Shown here piece by piece: positions 1-45,589 of a stretch of DNA of 46,539 nt; position 1 is the first letter of the stretch, and every line of letters begins with the position of its first letter. The stretch is from positions 1,577,193 to 1,623,731 of the forward strand of contig CP070783.1 of assembly GCA_020346465.1 (NCBI GenBank). Direction: 5' to 3'. Under the pieces are notes generated by a model, which worked only from the letters and a program-made list of their open reading frames with translations, did not search any database and was not told the DNA's origin. A program made the translations under genes and the position numbers. This DNA is from Deltaproteobacteria bacterium. Lineage in GTDB: Bacteria > Desulfobacterota > Deferrimicrobia > Deferrimicrobiales > Deferrimicrobiaceae.

Positions 1-71
1 TCACGGCGAAGGTCAAGGCACCCGGGAAGCCGATCGAAATTCCGGTGCTCGGCCCGAGGGAAGAGGCTTGA
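1..71 (+). CDS. C-terminal end of a truncated unknown protein
   Basis: Only the last 22 codons lie in the window, ending at TGA 69-71 with the residues GPREEA. The fragment is too short to assign to a family. It is read as coding because its codon use is GC-rich at third positions like its neighbours, and because the following 283 bases look like a leader region. Whether it belongs with the Tct transporter cannot be told. Confidence 0.4.
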   Translation, partial: TAKVKAPGKPIEIPVLGPREEA

Positions 72-181
72 GGTTCAAAAAGAAAAAAGGTATTTTGATT
101 GAAAGTAACCCGAACACAAGCAACAACGTGTGAATGAAAAGCGGGAAAGAACCGTCTGTTTTCGGAAGGGTCCATGGGGTA

Positions 182-224
182 CCGGCAGCGCTCCCAATTC
201 ATACCCCCTTGGGAGCGTTGCCGG
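182..224 (+). other. Strong hairpin in the tctC leader
   Basis: A 16-bp stem (182-197 with 209-224) closes an 11-nt loop. The only imperfection is one G-U pair if the RNA is read from the + strand; the - strand transcript would have a C-A mismatch there, so + is favoured. No U-tract follows, so it is not a standard intrinsic terminator. It could be an mRNA-stabilising or regulatory leader of tctC, or the 3' end of the upstream transcript. Confidence 0.5.
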
Positions 225-354
225 ACCACCGGGACACCGGGTAAAAGGTCGTACCATAAAATGGTCTATCGGGGAGGTGGAGAAAGAAAACGATTTTGAA
301 TGCTTCGTGTCAGAGGGGGTACATGGTCGGAAGATTTCCTTAGAAGGAGGGCAC

Positions 355-20905: not shown

Positions 20906-22166
20906 GACCGGCTCCTCCCGCCGAGGGGAGATGGATCGAAAGGATCGCCCCCTTTCCCTCTTTCCGATTGGACAGCTCGATGGTTCCCCCCATTCCCTCC
21001 ACCACTTTTCTGGAATAGGCAAGGCCCAGCCCCGTCCCGTCCGTTTTCGTCGTGTGGAACGGCGTGAACAGCCGGGCCCGGTCCGGCTCCGGGATTCCGG
21101 GTCCTTCGTCCTCGATCCGGATGGCGATCCGGCGGTCTTCCTCCCCGACGGTGATTCGGAGAACGCCCCCGTCACGCATCGACTCCACCGCGTTCCGGAT
21201 GCCGTTCGCAAGGACCCTGCGCATCTTCTCCCGGTCCGCCCGCGCGCGGATCCCGGGGGGGATGGAAAGCTCCACGCTGCCGCCCCACCGGGATGCGTCG
21301 GTTTCCAGTGCTTCGCGGACCAGCGGGGCGACGTCGACGGGACGCGATTCGTACGTCTCTTCCCGGGAGAAGATCAGGAGGTCGTTCACGAGGGATTCGA
21401 TCCGTCCGATTCCGCGAAGCGCGGGGGAGACTGGCCCGTTGTGGTCACCGGGCGCCCTCTTCTTCTCCTCGTCCAGCTGGACGAACCCCTTGATACCGCC
21501 CAGCGCATTGCGGATCTCGTGGGCGAGCGAGGCCGTCATCTGTCCGATGAGGGAGAGGCGTTCCCGCCTCTCCACCTCGACGGCGAGTCGGAGCTGGCGG
21601 GCAAACAACCTCTCCAGGACAATCCCGGCCGCCCACAGCAGGGCGAGCACGCCGGCAACCGTCCACCACATCGTCCGTGCGTCGGACAGGATCCGGTCCG
21701 CAGCGGCCGTGTGAAGGACGATCCGGAGAAGTTCGGGGGTGCCGTCGGGGCGGTGCAGGATGTAATTGTACTCGTAGGCGGGAAGACCGGTGCCGAGGGT
21801 CACCCTCCGCCCGAAGCCCGCGCCCGAGTGGAGCCAGCGTCCCAGTCCCTCTTCGGGCAGGATTGCCCCTGCCATCCGGGGGTTGGTATGGAAGAGGATC
21901 GTTCCGTCCCCCCCTGCGATCAGCGCGTACGCCACGACACGGTCCGACAGGATCTCCCGGATCTCCCCGGCCGACCCCTTCCCGCTCGCACGCAGCGCGT
22001 TTTCCGCGGACGAGGAAAGCGCCAGCGCGGTGCTTTCGAGCGAGAGGACGGCCAGAGAGCGGGCGTTGCGGGTGTTCCGGTAGGTGACGTAGAGTACGGA
22101 CCCGGTGGAGGAGAGCAGGACCAGGAGAAGAACGGCTCGCACGGCGATCGGGAGGGCGGGTCTCAT
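20898..22166 (-). CDS. Sensor histidine kinase, partner of the sigma-54 regulator
   Basis: A 422-residue kinase with two membrane helices (about 8-28 and 166-186) flanking a periplasmic sensor of roughly 135 residues, which includes LIAGGDGTILFHTNPRMAGA, a PAS-like strand pattern. The H-box is SLAHEIRN (His216). ATPase motifs are NGIRNAVESM (N box), DEGPGIPEPD (G1), FTPFHTTKTDGTGLGLAYSRKVVEGMGG (F/G2). There is no HAMP domain. ATG 22166 overlaps the stop codon of threonine ammonia-lyase (ATGA). The layout resembles ZraS-type kinases, but the ligand is unknown. Confidence 0.93.
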   Translation of the reverse strand: MRPALPIAVRAVLLLVLLSSTGSVLYVTYRNTRNARSLAVLSLESTALALSSSAENALRASGKGSAGEIREILSDRVVAYALIAGGDGTILFHTNPRMAGAILPEEGLGRWLHSGAGFGRRVTLGTGLPAYEYNYILHRPDGTPELLRIVLHTAAADRILSDARTMWWTVAGVLALLWAAGIVLERLFARQLRLAVEVERRERLSLIGQMTASLAHEIRNALGGIKGFVQLDEEKKRAPGDHNGPVSPALRGIGRIESLVNDLLIFSREETYESRPVDVAPLVREALETDASRWGGSVELSIPPGIRARADREKMRRVLANGIRNAVESMRDGGVLRITVGEEDRRIAIRIEDEGPGIPEPDRARLFTPFHTTKTDGTGLGLAYSRKVVEGMGGTIELSNRKEGKGAILSIHLPSAGGAGHA

Positions 22167-23395
22167 GGGAGAGGGCGCTCCGTGGCTCCGCTCGTGGACC
22201 GGAATCCCAGATCGTCGAGCCGGGCGCAGAGCTCCTCCCCGTGGGCGCGGTCGCGCGTCTCGAGGAGCAGCACGACGGTCGAGCACCCCGGCGGGCAGTC
22301 GGGAGAGAGACGGTCGTGCTCGATGCTGATCACGTTCGACCGTTCCCGGGCCACGGCGGCGAGCAGAGCAGCGAGGGAACCGGGCCGGTCCGGGATGAGG
22401 AACCGCAGGCGGATCAGCCTCCCCGACCGGAACAGCCCTCTCTCGGTGATCCGGGACAGGAAGTGGACGTCGATGTTCCCTCCCGACAGCACCATCACGG
22501 CGGGAAAACGCTTCGGCGGGCGCTTGTAGAGCAGCGCCGCCAGGGGGGCTGCCCCGGCGCCTTCCAGCGTGGTCTTCATCTCCTCGAGGGCGTACAGGAT
22601 CGCCGCGGCGATTTCCTCGTCGTCCACGACGACGACGTCGTCGACCCACCGTTTCGCAGCCTCGAAGGTCCGCTCGCTCAAGGATGCCACCGCGATGCCG
22701 TCCGCGATCGTGCGCGCCTCCGGGCACCCGACGGGCCGTCCCGCCGCAAGAGACGGGAGAAGCGACGAGGCCCCTTGCGCCTGGACCGCGACGAGTTCCG
22801 CATCCGGATACGTCTCCTTCACCGCGGCCCCGATCCCGGCCAGGAGGCCCCCGCCGCCCACGGGAACGTAGACCGTCCCGGGGAAGCCGATCTCCTCGAC
22901 GAGTTCGATCCCCAGCGTCCCTTGTCCCGCGATCACCATCGGGTCGTCGAACGGATGGATCATCTCGAGGCCGGACTCTCCGGCCAGGGAGGCGGCGTGC
23001 TCCGCCGCGTCGTCGAAGGTCTCCCCGTGGTGGATGATGCGTGCGTTCCCCCCCCCTTCGCGCTTCGCGGCGGCCGACTTGGACACGGGGGCCCACACCG
23101 GCATCACGAGGGTCGCGGGGATTCCCGCCTCCTTCGCGGCGCGGGCGACGCCGCGGGCATGGTTCCCCGCACTCGCCGCGATGACGCCGGGCACCCGGGC
23201 GCGGTCGAGGGAAAGCACCTTGTTGGCGGCGCCCCGGATCTTGAACGACCCGGTTGTCTGGAGATTTTCCAGCTTCGACAGGACCCTCCCGCCTGCCCGC
23301 TCGGACAGCGGGGTCTCCTCGACCAGCGGGGTGGCGTACGCAAGCCGGTAGACCAGCTCCTTTGCCGCGATCACGTCCTTTCGCCCGAAGTCCAC
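22163..23395 (-). CDS. ilvA: Threonine ammonia-lyase (catabolic type with ACT domain)
   Basis: A 410-residue PLP enzyme of the tryptophan-synthase-beta fold. Lys52 in TTGSFKIRGA binds PLP, ASAGNHARGVARAA is the substrate loop and VPVGGGGLLAGIGAAVKE is the phosphate-binding Gly loop. Residues about 330-410 form a single ACT domain (LRFLIPDRPGSLAALLAAVA). It deaminates threonine to 2-oxobutanoate for isoleucine synthesis or catabolism. The start is GTG 23395 with GGGAGGG. Its stop overlaps the sensor kinase start, which ties an amino-acid enzyme to a two-component system. Confidence 0.92.
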   Translation of the reverse strand: MDFGRKDVIAAKELVYRLAYATPLVEETPLSERAGGRVLSKLENLQTTGSFKIRGAANKVLSLDRARVPGVIAASAGNHARGVARAAKEAGIPATLVMPVWAPVSKSAAAKREGGGNARIIHHGETFDDAAEHAASLAGESGLEMIHPFDDPMVIAGQGTLGIELVEEIGFPGTVYVPVGGGGLLAGIGAAVKETYPDAELVAVQAQGASSLLPSLAAGRPVGCPEARTIADGIAVASLSERTFEAAKRWVDDVVVVDDEEIAAAILYALEEMKTTLEGAGAAPLAALLYKRPPKRFPAVMVLSGGNIDVHFLSRITERGLFRSGRLIRLRFLIPDRPGSLAALLAAVARERSNVISIEHDRLSPDCPPGCSTVVLLLETRDRAHGEELCARLDDLGFRSTSGATERPLP

Positions 23396-23442
23396 GGGAC
23401 CCTCCCGGCTTCAGTCTACCAACGCGCGGGGGACGCATCCAG

Positions 23443-23467
23443 CAGGCCTTGCCGGCCCTGTTTTTTT
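23443..23467 (+). terminator. Terminator-like hairpin on the + strand
   Basis: CAGGCC pairs with GG(C)CCTG, with one bulged C, around a 5-nt loop (23443-23460), then seven T (23461-23467). No + strand gene ends here, so it would stop only an antisense transcript of ilvA. Confidence 0.35.
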
Positions 23468-23492
23468 GATGGCGGCCGGAGCGCCGAAGAGA

Positions 23493-23498
23493 TATACT
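23493..23498 (+). promoter_or_regulatory. -10 element TATACT of the candidate small RNA
   Basis: A near-consensus -10 whose predicted start, 7 bases downstream, falls on G23505, the first base of the long closing stem. The -35 side is weak. Confidence 0.45.
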
Positions 23499-23504
23499 GA
23501 ATTT

Positions 23505-23660
23505 GCGGATCTGGGGATTGAGCCGGCGAACAGGTCGGCTCGGAAATCCGCCGCGCGGCGCAGAGCCTCCCCTCGAGTAGGGGAGAGAAAAAACGACCCT
23601 GCGATCCGGCGGAACGCACTTCCTGCCTTGAGCAAGCGGGACACCGACCCAGATCCGCAT
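23505..23660 (+). ncRNA. Candidate structured RNA with 6S-like architecture
   Basis: The spacer between the dehydrogenase and ilvA genes folds as nested stems: a perfect 11-bp closing stem (23505-23515 with 23648-23658), a 7-bp stem (23547-23553 with 23607-23613), a 5-bp stem (23559-23563 with 23599-23603) and a 7-bp apical hairpin (23567-23573 with 23579-23585). The 5' side of the large internal bubble has a hairpin GAGCCG/CGGCTC (23520-23541), and the 3' side has CCTGC/GCGGG (23622-23640), which includes a pair that is G-U only in the + strand RNA. Length of about 155 nt and the closing stem/bubble/apical arm order are like 6S RNA. No sequence signature of 6S was verified. Confidence 0.45.
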
Positions 23661-23691
23661 CTGCTTGTCCGGACCTTCGATCGATCGTTCC

Positions 23692-25404
23692 TCAGGGATT
23701 CCCGGTGGAGAAGGTCCTCGTGGCGCTCTCCCCCGTGGCCGCCCCGCCTTCCGCGACGACTTTCCAGTAATGCGTTGTGTTCGGGGCAAGCCCCGATTCC
23801 GTGTGTGCGATGGTGTTTGGCGGGGGAGCCGGCTGGCTGCTCCCGCCCCCCCCGCAGCCGGGTCCCGCCCAGGTTGCCAGTGCCCCCGAAAGGATCAGGA
23901 GGCCAGCGAGCGCCCGAAGACGTCCCTGGCGCCGGAGGCACGCGGACAGAACGATGCCGGCGACCAGGATGCCAGGCCGGGTGTTCGCCCCCCTCTGCGG
24001 AGCGGTCTGGCCGGGGGATCCGGGGACCGGCACGGGGACAGCCCCTGCGAAAGACGGATCGGTGTCCAGGAAGAACAGGTAGGTGACGGGGTCCCCGTCC
24101 GGGTCGACGGACGGTTCCCACCGGAAGGTCACCGAGGTGGGCAGGCCGGCCTGACCGTCCTGCGGGGAGACGAGCGCCGGGGGCGAAGGCGGGTTATTGG
24201 TCGCGATGATCTCGTACACGGCGCCTCCGGTATAGTCCGTCGCGAACAGGTTTCCCGCCTCGTCCTCGCCGAAGCCGGATACCGAAAACGGCACGGTCAG
24301 AAGCAGGCTGTTTTCCCATGCCGAACCGTCCCGGGACAGCCCCCAGACCCGCCCGCTGCAGAAATCCGCGTAGAAGTAGATCCCCTCCATTGCGGGATAC
24401 GCCCCTCCCCGGTAGACCGCCCCTCCCGTAACGGAACAACCCTGTGAGTGATCGTACAAGGCTACCGGCGGGACGAAATCCAAAGGGTTGCATGCAGTGC
24501 CCCCGAAGCACCTGTTCCCCTCCAGGATGTTCCAGCCGTAGTTCTCGCCCCCGGTGCTCGAAGCGGGCTGGAAGTCCACCTCTTCGAAGGAACCCTCCCC
24601 CACGTCGCCGATATAGAGATCCCCCGTTCCGCGGTCGAAGGAGAAACGCCAGGGGTTGCGCAGTCCCAACGCCCAGATCTCGCCGCGGAACCCTGTCCTT
24701 CCCGCGAAGGGGTTGCCCGGCGGTACCGCGTAAGGGATGACGCCTCCTTCGACGTCGATCCGGAGCATCTTGCCCAGCAGCGTGGACGGGTTCTGCGCAT
24801 TGCCCTGCGGGTCTCCCCCGGAGCCGCCGTCCCCCATCCCGACGTAGAGAAAGCCGTCGGGGCCGAAGGCGATCTGGCCTCCGTTGTGGTTGGAAAAAGG
24901 CTGGTCGATGACGAGCAGGACCTCCTCGGAAGATGGGTCGGCCACGTCGGGGTCCGGGGTCACCCGGTATCGCGCGACGATCGTTGCGCCGTCCCCTGCC
25001 CGGGTGTAGTCGACATAGAAGTGTCCTTTTGTTGCATACCCCGACGGGAAAGCCACGCCGAGGAGTCCCCGCTCGCCGCCGGCGAGTACGCGGGCGCTGA
25101 TATCCAGGAAAGGAACGGCCCCAAGGGTCCCGTCCTTGAGCGTTTGGATGCGCCCTCCCTGCTCCACGACGAAGAGAGTGCCGCTTCCATCTCCTGCATG
25201 CGTGACCTGCACGGGCTGGTTGAACCCCCCGGCCCGCAGGACGAGGGATATGCGCGGCCAGGGAACGGCGGCAATGCCCGCCTGTGCCGCTTTTGCCTTG
25301 GCCGGCGGCAGGAAAAAGGGGAGCCCGGCAAGCGTCAGGCAGAGAACCGGGGTTGCGATCCAGCCCCTGGCGATGGTTCGTGTTCGCGGAAGTCGGCTGT
25401 CCAT
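23692..25404 (-). CDS. Secreted glucose/sorbosone dehydrogenase with C-terminal FN3-like region
   Basis: A 570-residue exported protein. A signal peptide (to about residue 40) is followed by a six-bladed GSDH propeller (about 50-405): GGFNQPVQVTHAGDGSGTLF, ERGLLGVAFPSGY, FSNHNGGQIAFGPDGFLYVGMGDGGSGGDPQGNAQ, RNPWRFSFD, ENYGWNILEG. The NHNGG and GMGDGG parts line the PQQ/Ca2+ site in this family. It probably oxidises aldose sugars in the periplasm or outside. Residues 406-570 are FN3-like but split by about 69 residues (461-529) containing two hydrophobic stretches and a Gly/Cys knot. ATG 25404 is used; no strong ribosome site is visible. Confidence 0.88.
   Translation of the reverse strand: MDSRLPRTRTIARGWIATPVLCLTLAGLPFFLPPAKAKAAQAGIAAVPWPRISLVLRAGGFNQPVQVTHAGDGSGTLFVVEQGGRIQTLKDGTLGAVPFLDISARVLAGGERGLLGVAFPSGYATKGHFYVDYTRAGDGATIVARYRVTPDPDVADPSSEEVLLVIDQPFSNHNGGQIAFGPDGFLYVGMGDGGSGGDPQGNAQNPSTLLGKMLRIDVEGGVIPYAVPPGNPFAGRTGFRGEIWALGLRNPWRFSFDRGTGDLYIGDVGEGSFEEVDFQPASSTGGENYGWNILEGNRCFGGTACNPLDFVPPVALYDHSQGCSVTGGAVYRGGAYPAMEGIYFYADFCSGRVWGLSRDGSAWENSLLLTVPFSVSGFGEDEAGNLFATDYTGGAVYEIIATNNPPSPPALVSPQDGQAGLPTSVTFRWEPSVDPDGDPVTYLFFLDTDPSFAGAVPVPVPGSPGQTAPQRGANTRPGILVAGIVLSACLRRQGRLRALAGLLILSGALATWAGPGCGGGGSSQPAPPPNTIAHTESGLAPNTTHYWKVVAEGGAATGESATRTFSTGNP
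23818..24024 (-). other. Hydrophobic in-frame insert splitting the FN3 domain
   Basis: Codons 461-529 of the dehydrogenase. They encode a Pro/Gln-rich lead, GILVAGIVLSA, LRRQGRLR, ALAGLLILSGALATWAG, then GCGGGGSSQPAPPP. The flanking sequences (EPSVDPDGDPVTYLFFLDTDP before; ESGLAPNTTHYWKVVAE after) join as one continuous FN3-type fold if the segment is removed. Confidence 0.6.
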
Positions 25405-43732: not shown

Positions 43733-45589
43733 CTATGGCACTACGTCAAACCGCGCCATCATGGCATTGTCTTCGTGCTCGAGCACGTGGCAGTGCAAGA
43801 CGTACCTCCCCGCATAATCGGCGAAGCGCATGATGATCCGGACGCTGCCCATGGCCGGCACATTCACCGTGTCCTTCCAGCCGGCATGGGTCGGCGGGGG
43901 AGGGGTACCATTGATGTCCAGGATCTGGAACATGGTCTGGTGCAGGTGCGCTGGATGATCCATCATGGACATGTTCCGGAATTCCCAGATCTCCACCGTG
44001 CCCAGCTTCGGGTTGGCATCCACCCTGTCGGGATCGAAGGGTTTCCCGTTGATAACCCAGGGACTGCCTCCCATCATGCCCATCATGCCGCCCGAGAACG
44101 TGAAGCCGCGTGTCAGGACAGCCTGGCTTGTGCTCAGCTTCTCGAGCGGGCGAAAACTGGGGGGTATTTGACTGGTGTCCGTCTCCACCCTGTCCACGTC
44201 GAAGCGAATAATGTTCGCCGTACTTCCCGACCCCAGGGAGTTTTGCAGAACTACGGAGCCGCCCACGGGGAGTGACGAAAAATCCACCACGATATCCGCG
44301 CGCTCGGCCGGGGCCAGTACAAGGGAGTTCACCTTGACCGGCGCGGGCAGGAGACCTCCCTCCATGCCGAGCACATGGAAGGGCTGGCCGTTGCTCAAGG
44401 CGATCTGGTACTTGCGCGCATTGGAGCCGTTCAGCACACGGAATCGGTACTTATGCGCGGCGACCTGGAAATAGGGTTGGATGGTGCCGTTGACGAGTAT
44501 GGTGTTGCCCGTCTCACCAAACCGGTTGCCGGTGTACACAAGCTCGCCGTTCGTATCGAAATTGCGGTCCTGAATGACCAGCGGTATCTCGTAGGCGCCG
44601 CTCGGCAGCCCCAGGCTGTCCTCGTAGTCGTCCGTCAGGATGTAAAACCCCGCCATCCCGAACCATACATGAGGTCCGGTAAAGTCCATCAGGTGGTCGT
44701 GGTACCAAAGGGTGGCCGGCAGCTGGTTGTTCGGATAGGTATAGCTGCGGTTCGCGCCCGGGGGCACCGTGTCCGTCGGGAAGCCGTCCTCGGAAGAGGG
44801 CACGTGTCCGCCGTGCAGGTGAATGGCGATATCGCCGGGCGCGTCGCCGAGGGTGGTAACCGGAAGATTGTTGGAGTGGCTCATGACGACCTGACGTCCC
44901 ACGCGCGCCCGGATGGTAGGGCCGGGTGTGAGTCCGTTGAAACCCATGATGCGGGTCAACATGCCGGGGATGATCTCGACATCCGCCTCGCGAAGGGCAA
45001 GGTCATAGAAATCCGTCGTGCTCGTCGTTGAGGTCGGATTCAATACGGGCGGGATGTTGAGAGCCTGTGTGAACGGTTTTCCGCCTGCTCCGAAAAGGAA
45101 CAGGGGAATCGACGGGTTCTCTCCCCCTGCCAGCACGCCGGGACACCCCATGGGGGTGTTTGCAGGGGCAGCTTTGCCCCGGGTGAAGTCCGGATTCACC
45201 AAACCGAGGTCGATGGTCTGGCCGTCCGCACCGCTGGTGATTTGGAAAACGTTGGTCGTTCCCACATAGACGGGGAATACAACCGCGGCATTTCCCGCTG
45301 CCACGTTATCCATCAGAAAAAACATGTAACTCTTTTCCGTTGGCAACATCATGCGGAAAGTCGCCAGTCCTGTCGCGGACGTTGATCGCCCCGCCTCGAG
45401 ATTTGTATCGTTGTCTACCGCGACGAAGATGGTCCCCTGCACCGAGCCCTGGATCGTGGCGGTCCCGAATGCACCGGAGGAACTTCCCCCGCTTGTGCCC
45501 CCACCTCCGCATGCCGCAAGTGCGATGGAGAGTGTCAAGGCGAACAACAGGTACAGCATCTTCCGATAAGTTCCCGCTGGTGTTCTCAT
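43733..45589 (-). CDS. Multicopper oxidase lipoprotein with extra N-terminal domain
   Basis: A 618-residue protein. The lipobox region LSIALAACGGGG anchors it. A Ser/Gly linker and about 120 residues with no recognised oxidase motif (TIQGSVQGTIFVAVDNDT...) precede the three-cupredoxin oxidase. Copper motifs are complete: HLHGGH, WYHDH, HPAHLHQTMF and HCHVLEHEDNAMM (H-C-H-x3-H-x4-M, so an axial Met for the type 1 site). A Met-rich GGMMGMMGG loop resembles that of cuprous oxidases. AAGGGAAGG precedes ATG 45589. It would oxidise Cu(I) or another metal/phenolic substrate outside the inner membrane, with O2. The DUF5666 gene lies just upstream on the same strand. Confidence 0.92.
   Translation of the reverse strand: MRTPAGTYRKMLYLLFALTLSIALAACGGGGTSGGSSSGAFGTATIQGSVQGTIFVAVDNDTNLEAGRSTSATGLATFRMMLPTEKSYMFFLMDNVAAGNAAVVFPVYVGTTNVFQITSGADGQTIDLGLVNPDFTRGKAAPANTPMGCPGVLAGGENPSIPLFLFGAGGKPFTQALNIPPVLNPTSTTSTTDFYDLALREADVEIIPGMLTRIMGFNGLTPGPTIRARVGRQVVMSHSNNLPVTTLGDAPGDIAIHLHGGHVPSSEDGFPTDTVPPGANRSYTYPNNQLPATLWYHDHLMDFTGPHVWFGMAGFYILTDDYEDSLGLPSGAYEIPLVIQDRNFDTNGELVYTGNRFGETGNTILVNGTIQPYFQVAAHKYRFRVLNGSNARKYQIALSNGQPFHVLGMEGGLLPAPVKVNSLVLAPAERADIVVDFSSLPVGGSVVLQNSLGSGSTANIIRFDVDRVETDTSQIPPSFRPLEKLSTSQAVLTRGFTFSGGMMGMMGGSPWVINGKPFDPDRVDANPKLGTVEIWEFRNMSMMDHPAHLHQTMFQILDINGTPPPPTHAGWKDTVNVPAMGSVRIIMRFADYAGRYVLHCHVLEHEDNAMMARFDVVP

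What the first reader, a model, noticed from the sequence alone, without database searches (positions are those of the whole stretch)
23493..23660. Candidate 155-nt structured RNA (6S-like) in a gene-free gap
The gap between two - strand genes contains nested inverted repeats that build one consistent fold: an 11-bp perfect closing stem whose halves are more than 130 bases apart, inner 7- and 5-bp stems, a 7-bp apical hairpin, and one hairpin on each side of the bubble. A TATACT -10 places transcription start exactly at the first paired base. One stem uses a G-U pair possible only on the + strand. Six helices including an 11-bp long-range match are very unlikely by chance in about 160 bases. 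The geometry is that of 6S RNA, but I see no verified 6S sequence signature.
Basis: partly seen in the sequence, partly recalled or inferred. Interest (0 to 1): 0.7.

Follow-up and report, generated by a model that had tools for sequence, protein, structure and literature searches.

The report
Genus-specific structured small RNA gene
A 156-nucleotide stretch between two genes is very probably an independently transcribed structured RNA gene kept by all five sampled genomes of one deltaproteobacterial genus, but it is not 6S RNA, which this genome carries elsewhere, and its function is unknown.

Summary
Positions 23504-23659 (+) fold into a 12-bp closing stem (P1), a 9-bp hairpin (P2), a three-part apical arm (P3a-c) and a weaker hairpin (P4) (z = -5.0). 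Energy alone is not decisive: three other stretches of the window reach similar z. Comparative evidence decides it. The element occurs once in each of five genomes of the genus. Paired columns are about 95% identical where unpaired columns are 60-65% and neutral coding sites 69%. A TGGMG-N17-TATAMT promoter sits at constant distance from the first paired base. Conservation stops at the end of P1, while flanking genes have been lost or replaced. It is a stand-alone + strand ncRNA gene, not an ilvA leader or riboswitch.

The 6S reading fails: RF00013 does not match here, and a canonical 6S (82.5 bits) lies about 71 kb away. Invariant hairpin P2 replaces the open 5' bubble of 6S. No homologue was found outside the genus, in Rfam, or in phage, plasmid or viral sets. 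Hfq, CsrA and ProQ were not detected. Most likely: a lineage-specific trans-acting, probably protein-binding RNA; expression and function untested.

The parts
23504..23659 (+). structured ncRNA, 156 nt, from the inferred transcription start to the end of closing stem P1
   Evidence: fold z -5.0; homologues in all 5 genomes of the genus; paired columns far less variable than unpaired
23470..23475 (+). -35-like hexamer TGGCGG (TGGMG in all five genomes), 17-bp spacer
   Evidence: constant spacing over a variable spacer sequence; not a canonical TTGACA (one search finds no consensus promoter)
23493..23498 (+). -10 box TATACT (TATAAT in two relatives)
23504..23515 (+). P1 5' strand, closing stem, pairs with 23648-23659
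   Evidence: 12 bp perfect; 100% of cells paired in 5 genomes
23648..23659 (+). P1 3' strand
23519..23542 (+). P2 hairpin (23519-23527 with 23534-23542), hexaloop GAACAG or GAACCG; contains an invariant G-U pair
23547..23613 (+). P3 arm: P3a 23547-23553/23607-23613, P3b 23559-23563/23599-23603, P3c 23566-23573/23579-23587
   Evidence: one compensatory pair (T-A versus G-C) at the tip of P3c
23586..23594 (+). A-rich asymmetric bulge (AGAAAAAAC); the core A residues are invariant in five genomes
23621..23641 (+). P4 hairpin (23621-23626 with 23636-23641), weakest helix, not kept in G001
23643..23647 (+). invariant unpaired junction strand ACCGA between P4 and P1
23660..23705 (+). probable 3' tail / termination region; no classical terminator here, a hairpin with a weak U-run at the same place in relative G003
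   Evidence: inference

Best explanation
The stretch is a stand-alone small RNA gene on the + strand, specific to this genus. A sigma-70 type promoter (TGGMG-N17-TATAMT) starts a transcript at about 23504 that folds into a P1-closed four-helix junction. SHOWN by computation: structure-specific constraint, promoter conservation, single copy, independence from neighbouring genes, absence of a conserved reading frame. INFERRED: that it is transcribed, and that it acts in trans. Within that, the likeliest mode (about 0.45) is that it binds a protein: the double-stranded framework is held nearly invariant while most linkers drift at about the neutral rate, and the few conserved exposed bases (GAACNG loop, A-rich bulge, ACCGA junction strand) form a candidate contact surface. 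The next likeliest mode (about 0.25) is base-pairing with mRNAs through CU-rich or A-rich segments, without Hfq or ProQ.
For: Homologues at 79-97% identity in all four other genomes of the genus; model R1 scores 167-187 bits. Variable columns: 10 of 94 paired against 34 of 62 unpaired, Fisher p about 4e-9. Own vs G003: paired 96%, unpaired 60%, fourfold sites of the nearby regulator/kinase genes 69%; own vs G004: 95%, 65%, 69%. The canonical 6S RNA of the same genomes shows the same paired conservation, 93-98%. Conservation begins at the promoter and ends at P1, with flanks not alignable across the genus. Flanking genes differ: sulfite reductase or ilvA upstream; sugar dehydrogenase, an ABC transporter or nothing before the response regulator downstream. 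No codon-phase pattern (16/12/16) and shifting frames. Hfq, CsrA and ProQ models find nothing in this 96%-complete one-contig genome.
Against: No transcript data. Covariation is not significant (one compensatory pair; 47 of 500 shuffles as good). Only five sequences, two of them 97% identical. No clear intrinsic terminator in the window copy. The -35 hexamer is far from consensus. The role of the exposed motifs rests on five sequences and is inference.
Confidence: 0.8

Rival explanations
1. A second, divergent 6S RNA that binds RNA polymerase as a promoter mimic.
For: Length (156 nt), long closing stem, apical arm and a possible 3'-side hairpin resemble 6S; bacteria with two 6S RNAs exist (own knowledge, B. 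subtilis 6S-1/6S-2).
Against: No RF00013 match even at permissive threshold; canonical 6S elsewhere in the genome; no open 5' central bubble, because P2 is invariant and leaves only 3- and 4-nt linkers; most unpaired bases drift, unlike the 6S of the same genomes (unpaired identity own to G003/G004 60-65% against 84-86%); no sequence similarity to the own 6S beyond 7-nt matches.
Confidence: 0.06
2. A base-pairing trans-acting sRNA that blocks ribosome binding sites through CU-rich segments (CUUCCU at 23619-23624, CCUCCC in P3c).
For: CUUCCU and CCUCCC are invariant in all five genomes and complementary to Shine-Dalgarno-like sequence; such sRNAs exist in bacteria where Hfq is dispensable (own knowledge).
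Against: Both segments are mostly inside predicted helices; no Hfq or ProQ was found; no long conserved single-stranded seed. No target search was made.
Confidence: 0.25
3. A 5' leader or riboswitch: either of ilvA (- strand) or of the gene downstream on the + strand.
For: In the window it lies between ilvA's start and the preceding - strand gene; the - strand also folds well; in G003 an amino-acid ABC transporter follows on the same strand.
Against: In G001, G003 and G004 the neighbour is a sulfite reductase gene, not ilvA, and the following gene varies in identity and strand; the conserved -10 and the G-U pairs point to the + strand.
Confidence: 0.04
4. A DNA-level element (binding site, mobile element remnant) whose inverted repeats are read as RNA stems by accident.
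For: Perfect 12-bp terminal inverted repeats.
Against: Single copy in the genome; no match in phage, plasmid or viral collections; internal stems conserved; the one-sided changes that keep a pair are all to G-U on the + strand.
Confidence: 0.04
5. A small protein gene overlapping the fold.
For: An open frame begins at a UUG/AUG at columns 16-18 in all five genomes.
Against: It ends at different places, indels shift the frame, and variable columns show no codon periodicity.
Confidence: 0.02

Closest known systems
6S RNA (Rfam RF00013)
   Same: Similar length, closing stem formed by the 5' and 3' ends, apical arm, possible 3'-side hairpin; stems equally conserved in the same genomes
   Different: No model match; the genome has its own 6S next to a zapA-like gene; the 5' central bubble is replaced by an invariant hairpin, giving a four-helix junction; most unpaired bases are not conserved
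Orphan structured RNA motifs found by intergenic comparative genomics (e.g. PMC2864571, PMC8632094, PMC11109978)
   Same: Intergenic, structured, lineage-restricted, function unknown
   Different: Not matched by any of the 4227 Rfam 15 families; supported by structure-specific constraint rather than covariation. The motif lists of those papers were not compared one by one
Hfq-independent regulatory sRNAs (general class)
   Same: Stand-alone gene with own promoter in a genome without detected Hfq or ProQ; C/U-rich invariant segments
   Different: No exposed seed identified, no target known

Membership tests
6S RNA (RF00013) | score above the family covariance model's cut-off (46.4 bits) | tested here: not met
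   no RF00013 hit at E <= 5 with permissive filters on 23380-23760, while the genome's own 6S scores 82.5 bits
6S RNA (RF00013) | rod shape with a large, relatively unstructured central bubble, in particular an open 5' strand (PMC8876501, PMC8414754) | tested here: not met
   P2 fills the 5' side, with 0.88-0.96 mean pairing probability in all five sequences; linkers are 3 and 4 nt
6S RNA (RF00013) | closing stem joining 5' and 3' ends, and an apical arm | tested here: met
   P1 12 bp, P3 arm
6S RNA (RF00013) | binds housekeeping RNA polymerase and templates pRNA | not testable with these tools
   needs co-immunoprecipitation and small RNA-seq
cis-regulatory leader / riboswitch | constant association with the same downstream gene on the same strand | tested here: not met
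   immediate neighbours on both sides differ among the five genomes
stand-alone bacterial sRNA gene | own conserved promoter next to the first transcribed base | tested here: met
   TGGMG-N17-TATAMT-N5 then P1 in 5 of 5 genomes; promoter activity itself not tested
stand-alone bacterial sRNA gene | conserved fold under purifying selection, no coding frame | tested here: met
stand-alone bacterial sRNA gene | intrinsic terminator | tested here: inconclusive
   terminator-like hairpin found by the scan in G003, none in own, G004 or G001
stand-alone bacterial sRNA gene | a discrete transcript | not testable with these tools
   no RNA-seq available
Bacterial small SRP RNA (RF00169) | model match at this place | tested here: not met
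   the genome's SRP RNA is at G000:C1:107409-107508; no Rfam match here

The most novel reading that the evidence does not exclude
A newly arisen, highly structured RNA of a single genus that acts as a dedicated protein-binding regulator or scaffold of a kind not yet described, in a bacterium apparently without Hfq, ProQ or CsrA.
Probability: 0.2. Interest if true: 0.65.

Novelty: new member of a known kind. Interest (0 to 1): 0.42.

Why it matters
It adds a well-bounded, apparently undescribed structured RNA family from a deltaproteobacterial lineage known mostly from metagenome-assembled genomes, with promoter and start site predicted to the base. The sister genus genome G013 has the sulfite reductase gene adjacent to the response regulator with no room for the element, so it may be a recently gained non-coding RNA gene, and its origin could be studied there. 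It also shows that a 6S-looking outline is not enough to call 6S.

Tried and rejected
Rfam at gathering and permissive thresholds: nothing (the only weak hit, GHRLOS, is chance). Search for further copies in the genome: none. Model R1 in 99 relatives and, with laxer filters, 24 family genomes: only the genus; the other hits are under 20 bits and look like chance. R1 without filters on 14 regions upstream of the orthologous kinase gene in 13 genomes of other genera: nothing above 17.2 bits. A genome-collection scan for the P2 hairpin sequence gave 23 hits; the genus members are real, and the rest match only the hairpin or score weakly. DNA search of 395 genomes of the phylum: only the genus. 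Phage, plasmid and viral collections: none. ilvA leader, riboswitch, coding frame and SRP RNA were rejected as described. A 6-nt alternative pairing (GGUCGG of P2 with CCGACC at the P1 junction) was noticed but is likely chance in GC-rich RNA. A sigma-54 promoter was considered (TGG motif, NtrC-type regulator nearby), but the -12 element does not fit in G001, while TATAMT fits all five. Literature searches found nothing on RNAs of this lineage.

Full report
OBSERVATION. The closing stem is 12 bp, TGCGGATCTGGG / CCCAGATCCGCA, with 132 nt between the arms. Minimum free energy is -78.7 kcal/mol for 23493-23660, z -5.0, 0 of 200 shuffles as good. The - strand also folds well (z -4.45), as expected for a palindromic layout. 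A scan of 156-nt windows over the whole 46.5 kb, with 25 shuffles each, puts the element among the four strongest z values, with three other places comparable, so energy alone would not prove an RNA.

COMPARATIVE EVIDENCE. BLAST and a covariance model find one copy in each of the five genomes held for the genus. The genus is probably GTDB 'CSP1-8' (from memory, not tested). In the alignment conservation starts at the promoter and ends at the last base of P1. Own vs G003: paired columns 96% identical, unpaired 60%, fourfold degenerate sites of the nearby regulator and kinase genes 69%; own vs G004: 95%, 65% and 69%. Ten of 94 paired and 34 of 62 unpaired columns vary (Fisher p 4e-9). So stems are under strong constraint, and most linkers evolve at about the neutral rate. 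The canonical 6S RNA of the same five genomes shows comparable stem conservation (93-98%) but better conserved unpaired bases (80-97%).

Covariation is weak because stems hardly vary: one compensatory pair at the tip of P3c and four one-sided changes to G-U; shuffles reach the covariation score in 47 of 500. P1, P2 and P3a-c are predicted in each sequence separately; P4 is not supported in G001 and is weak in G003.

STRAND AND PROMOTER. All five copies carry TGGMG, a 17-bp spacer of variable sequence, TATAMT and a 5-nt discriminator before the first base of P1. Over the predicted pairs there are 17 G-U cells and 1 A-C cell, favouring the + strand (the fold was chosen on that strand, so this is supporting, not independent). 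A terminator-like hairpin follows in G003; the scan finds none in own, G004 or G001.

CONTEXT. The element always lies upstream of an NtrC-type response regulator, which in own, G001, G003 and G004 is followed by a DUF4118 histidine kinase (the G002 contig ends inside the regulator). In G001 and G004 the order is sulfite reductase, element, a glucose/sorbosone dehydrogenase gene on the opposite strand, regulator, kinase. In G003 a polar amino-acid ABC transporter replaces the dehydrogenase. In the window copy ilvA replaces the sulfite reductase on the upstream side, and in G002 the dehydrogenase is missing as well. In G001 ilvA lies a few kilobases beyond the sulfite reductase, which fits a deletion in the lineage of own and G002. 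The element persisted through all these changes, so it is not a leader of a neighbour. In sister-genus genome G013 the reductase and the regulator are about 90 bp apart, with no element. An unfiltered search of the regions upstream of the orthologous kinase in 13 genomes from other genera gave nothing above 17.2 bits, and 395 genomes of the phylum gave only the genus. A very divergent homologue elsewhere is not excluded: the first-look filter scored only 30 to 125 of up to about a thousand or more candidates per genome.

WHAT IT IS NOT. 6S: no match here at permissive thresholds; canonical copy at G000:C1:1529394-1529576, just downstream of a zapA-like gene (gene identity from reading the sequence); and the open 5' central bubble that defines 6S (PMC8876501; PMC8414754) is filled by P2. 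SRP RNA: a normal one is elsewhere. Coding: frames are not conserved and variable columns show no codon periodicity. Mobile or phage element: single copy, and no hits in phage, plasmid or viral collections.

MECHANISM. Shown by computation: conserved fold, conserved promoter, independence of neighbours. Inferred: transcription, and action in trans. No Hfq, CsrA or ProQ family member was detected in the 96%-complete one-contig genome, which argues against a CsrA sponge and against chaperone-dependent pairing. The conserved exposed bases are few: GAACNG hexaloop, A-rich bulge, a CU before P4, several P4 loop bases, and ACCGA next to P1. A rigid framework with a few fixed exposed bases is what a protein-binding RNA would look like; base-pairing through the invariant CUUCCU or CCUCCC segments is the main alternative. 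I give 0.93 to a real + strand RNA gene, 0.8 to trans action, and about 0.45 to protein binding as the mode; these are judgements, not computed values.

VERDICT. Real and apparently undescribed, but of a familiar kind: a lineage-specific orphan structured sRNA.

Noticed in passing
window 60-290 (+): Strong hairpin of about 16 bp (CGGCAGCGCTCCCAA / TTGGGAGCGTTGCCG) near the window start, next to a TctC-receptor gene; z -3.1 for the stretch and the top z of the window scan.
   Followed up: partly
window 45005-45160 (+): Well-folding stretch (z -3.7) overlapping, antisense, the predicted N-terminal part of a multicopper oxidase ORF; the true start of that gene may be further in.
   Followed up: partly
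window 21009-21104 (+): ARAGORN reports a 96-nt tRNA-Glu inside the - strand histidine kinase frame; probably a false positive.
   Followed up: no
window 23441-23467 (+): Hairpin-like sequence followed by seven T (GCAGGCCTTGCCGGCCCTGTTTTTTT) just upstream of the RNA promoter, shared only with G002; could be a terminator facing the promoter.
   Followed up: no
G000 whole genome: No Hfq, CsrA or ProQ detected in a one-contig, 96% complete genome that keeps canonical 6S and SRP RNA.
   Followed up: partly
L093 6682-8421, L094 6848-8572, L095 2272-4140: In three relatives a sulfite/nitrite reductase gene lies directly upstream of the RNA, preceded by an EF-Tu/CysN-like GTPase gene; they are missing from that place in the window genome, apparently by deletion next to ilvA.
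   Followed up: partly
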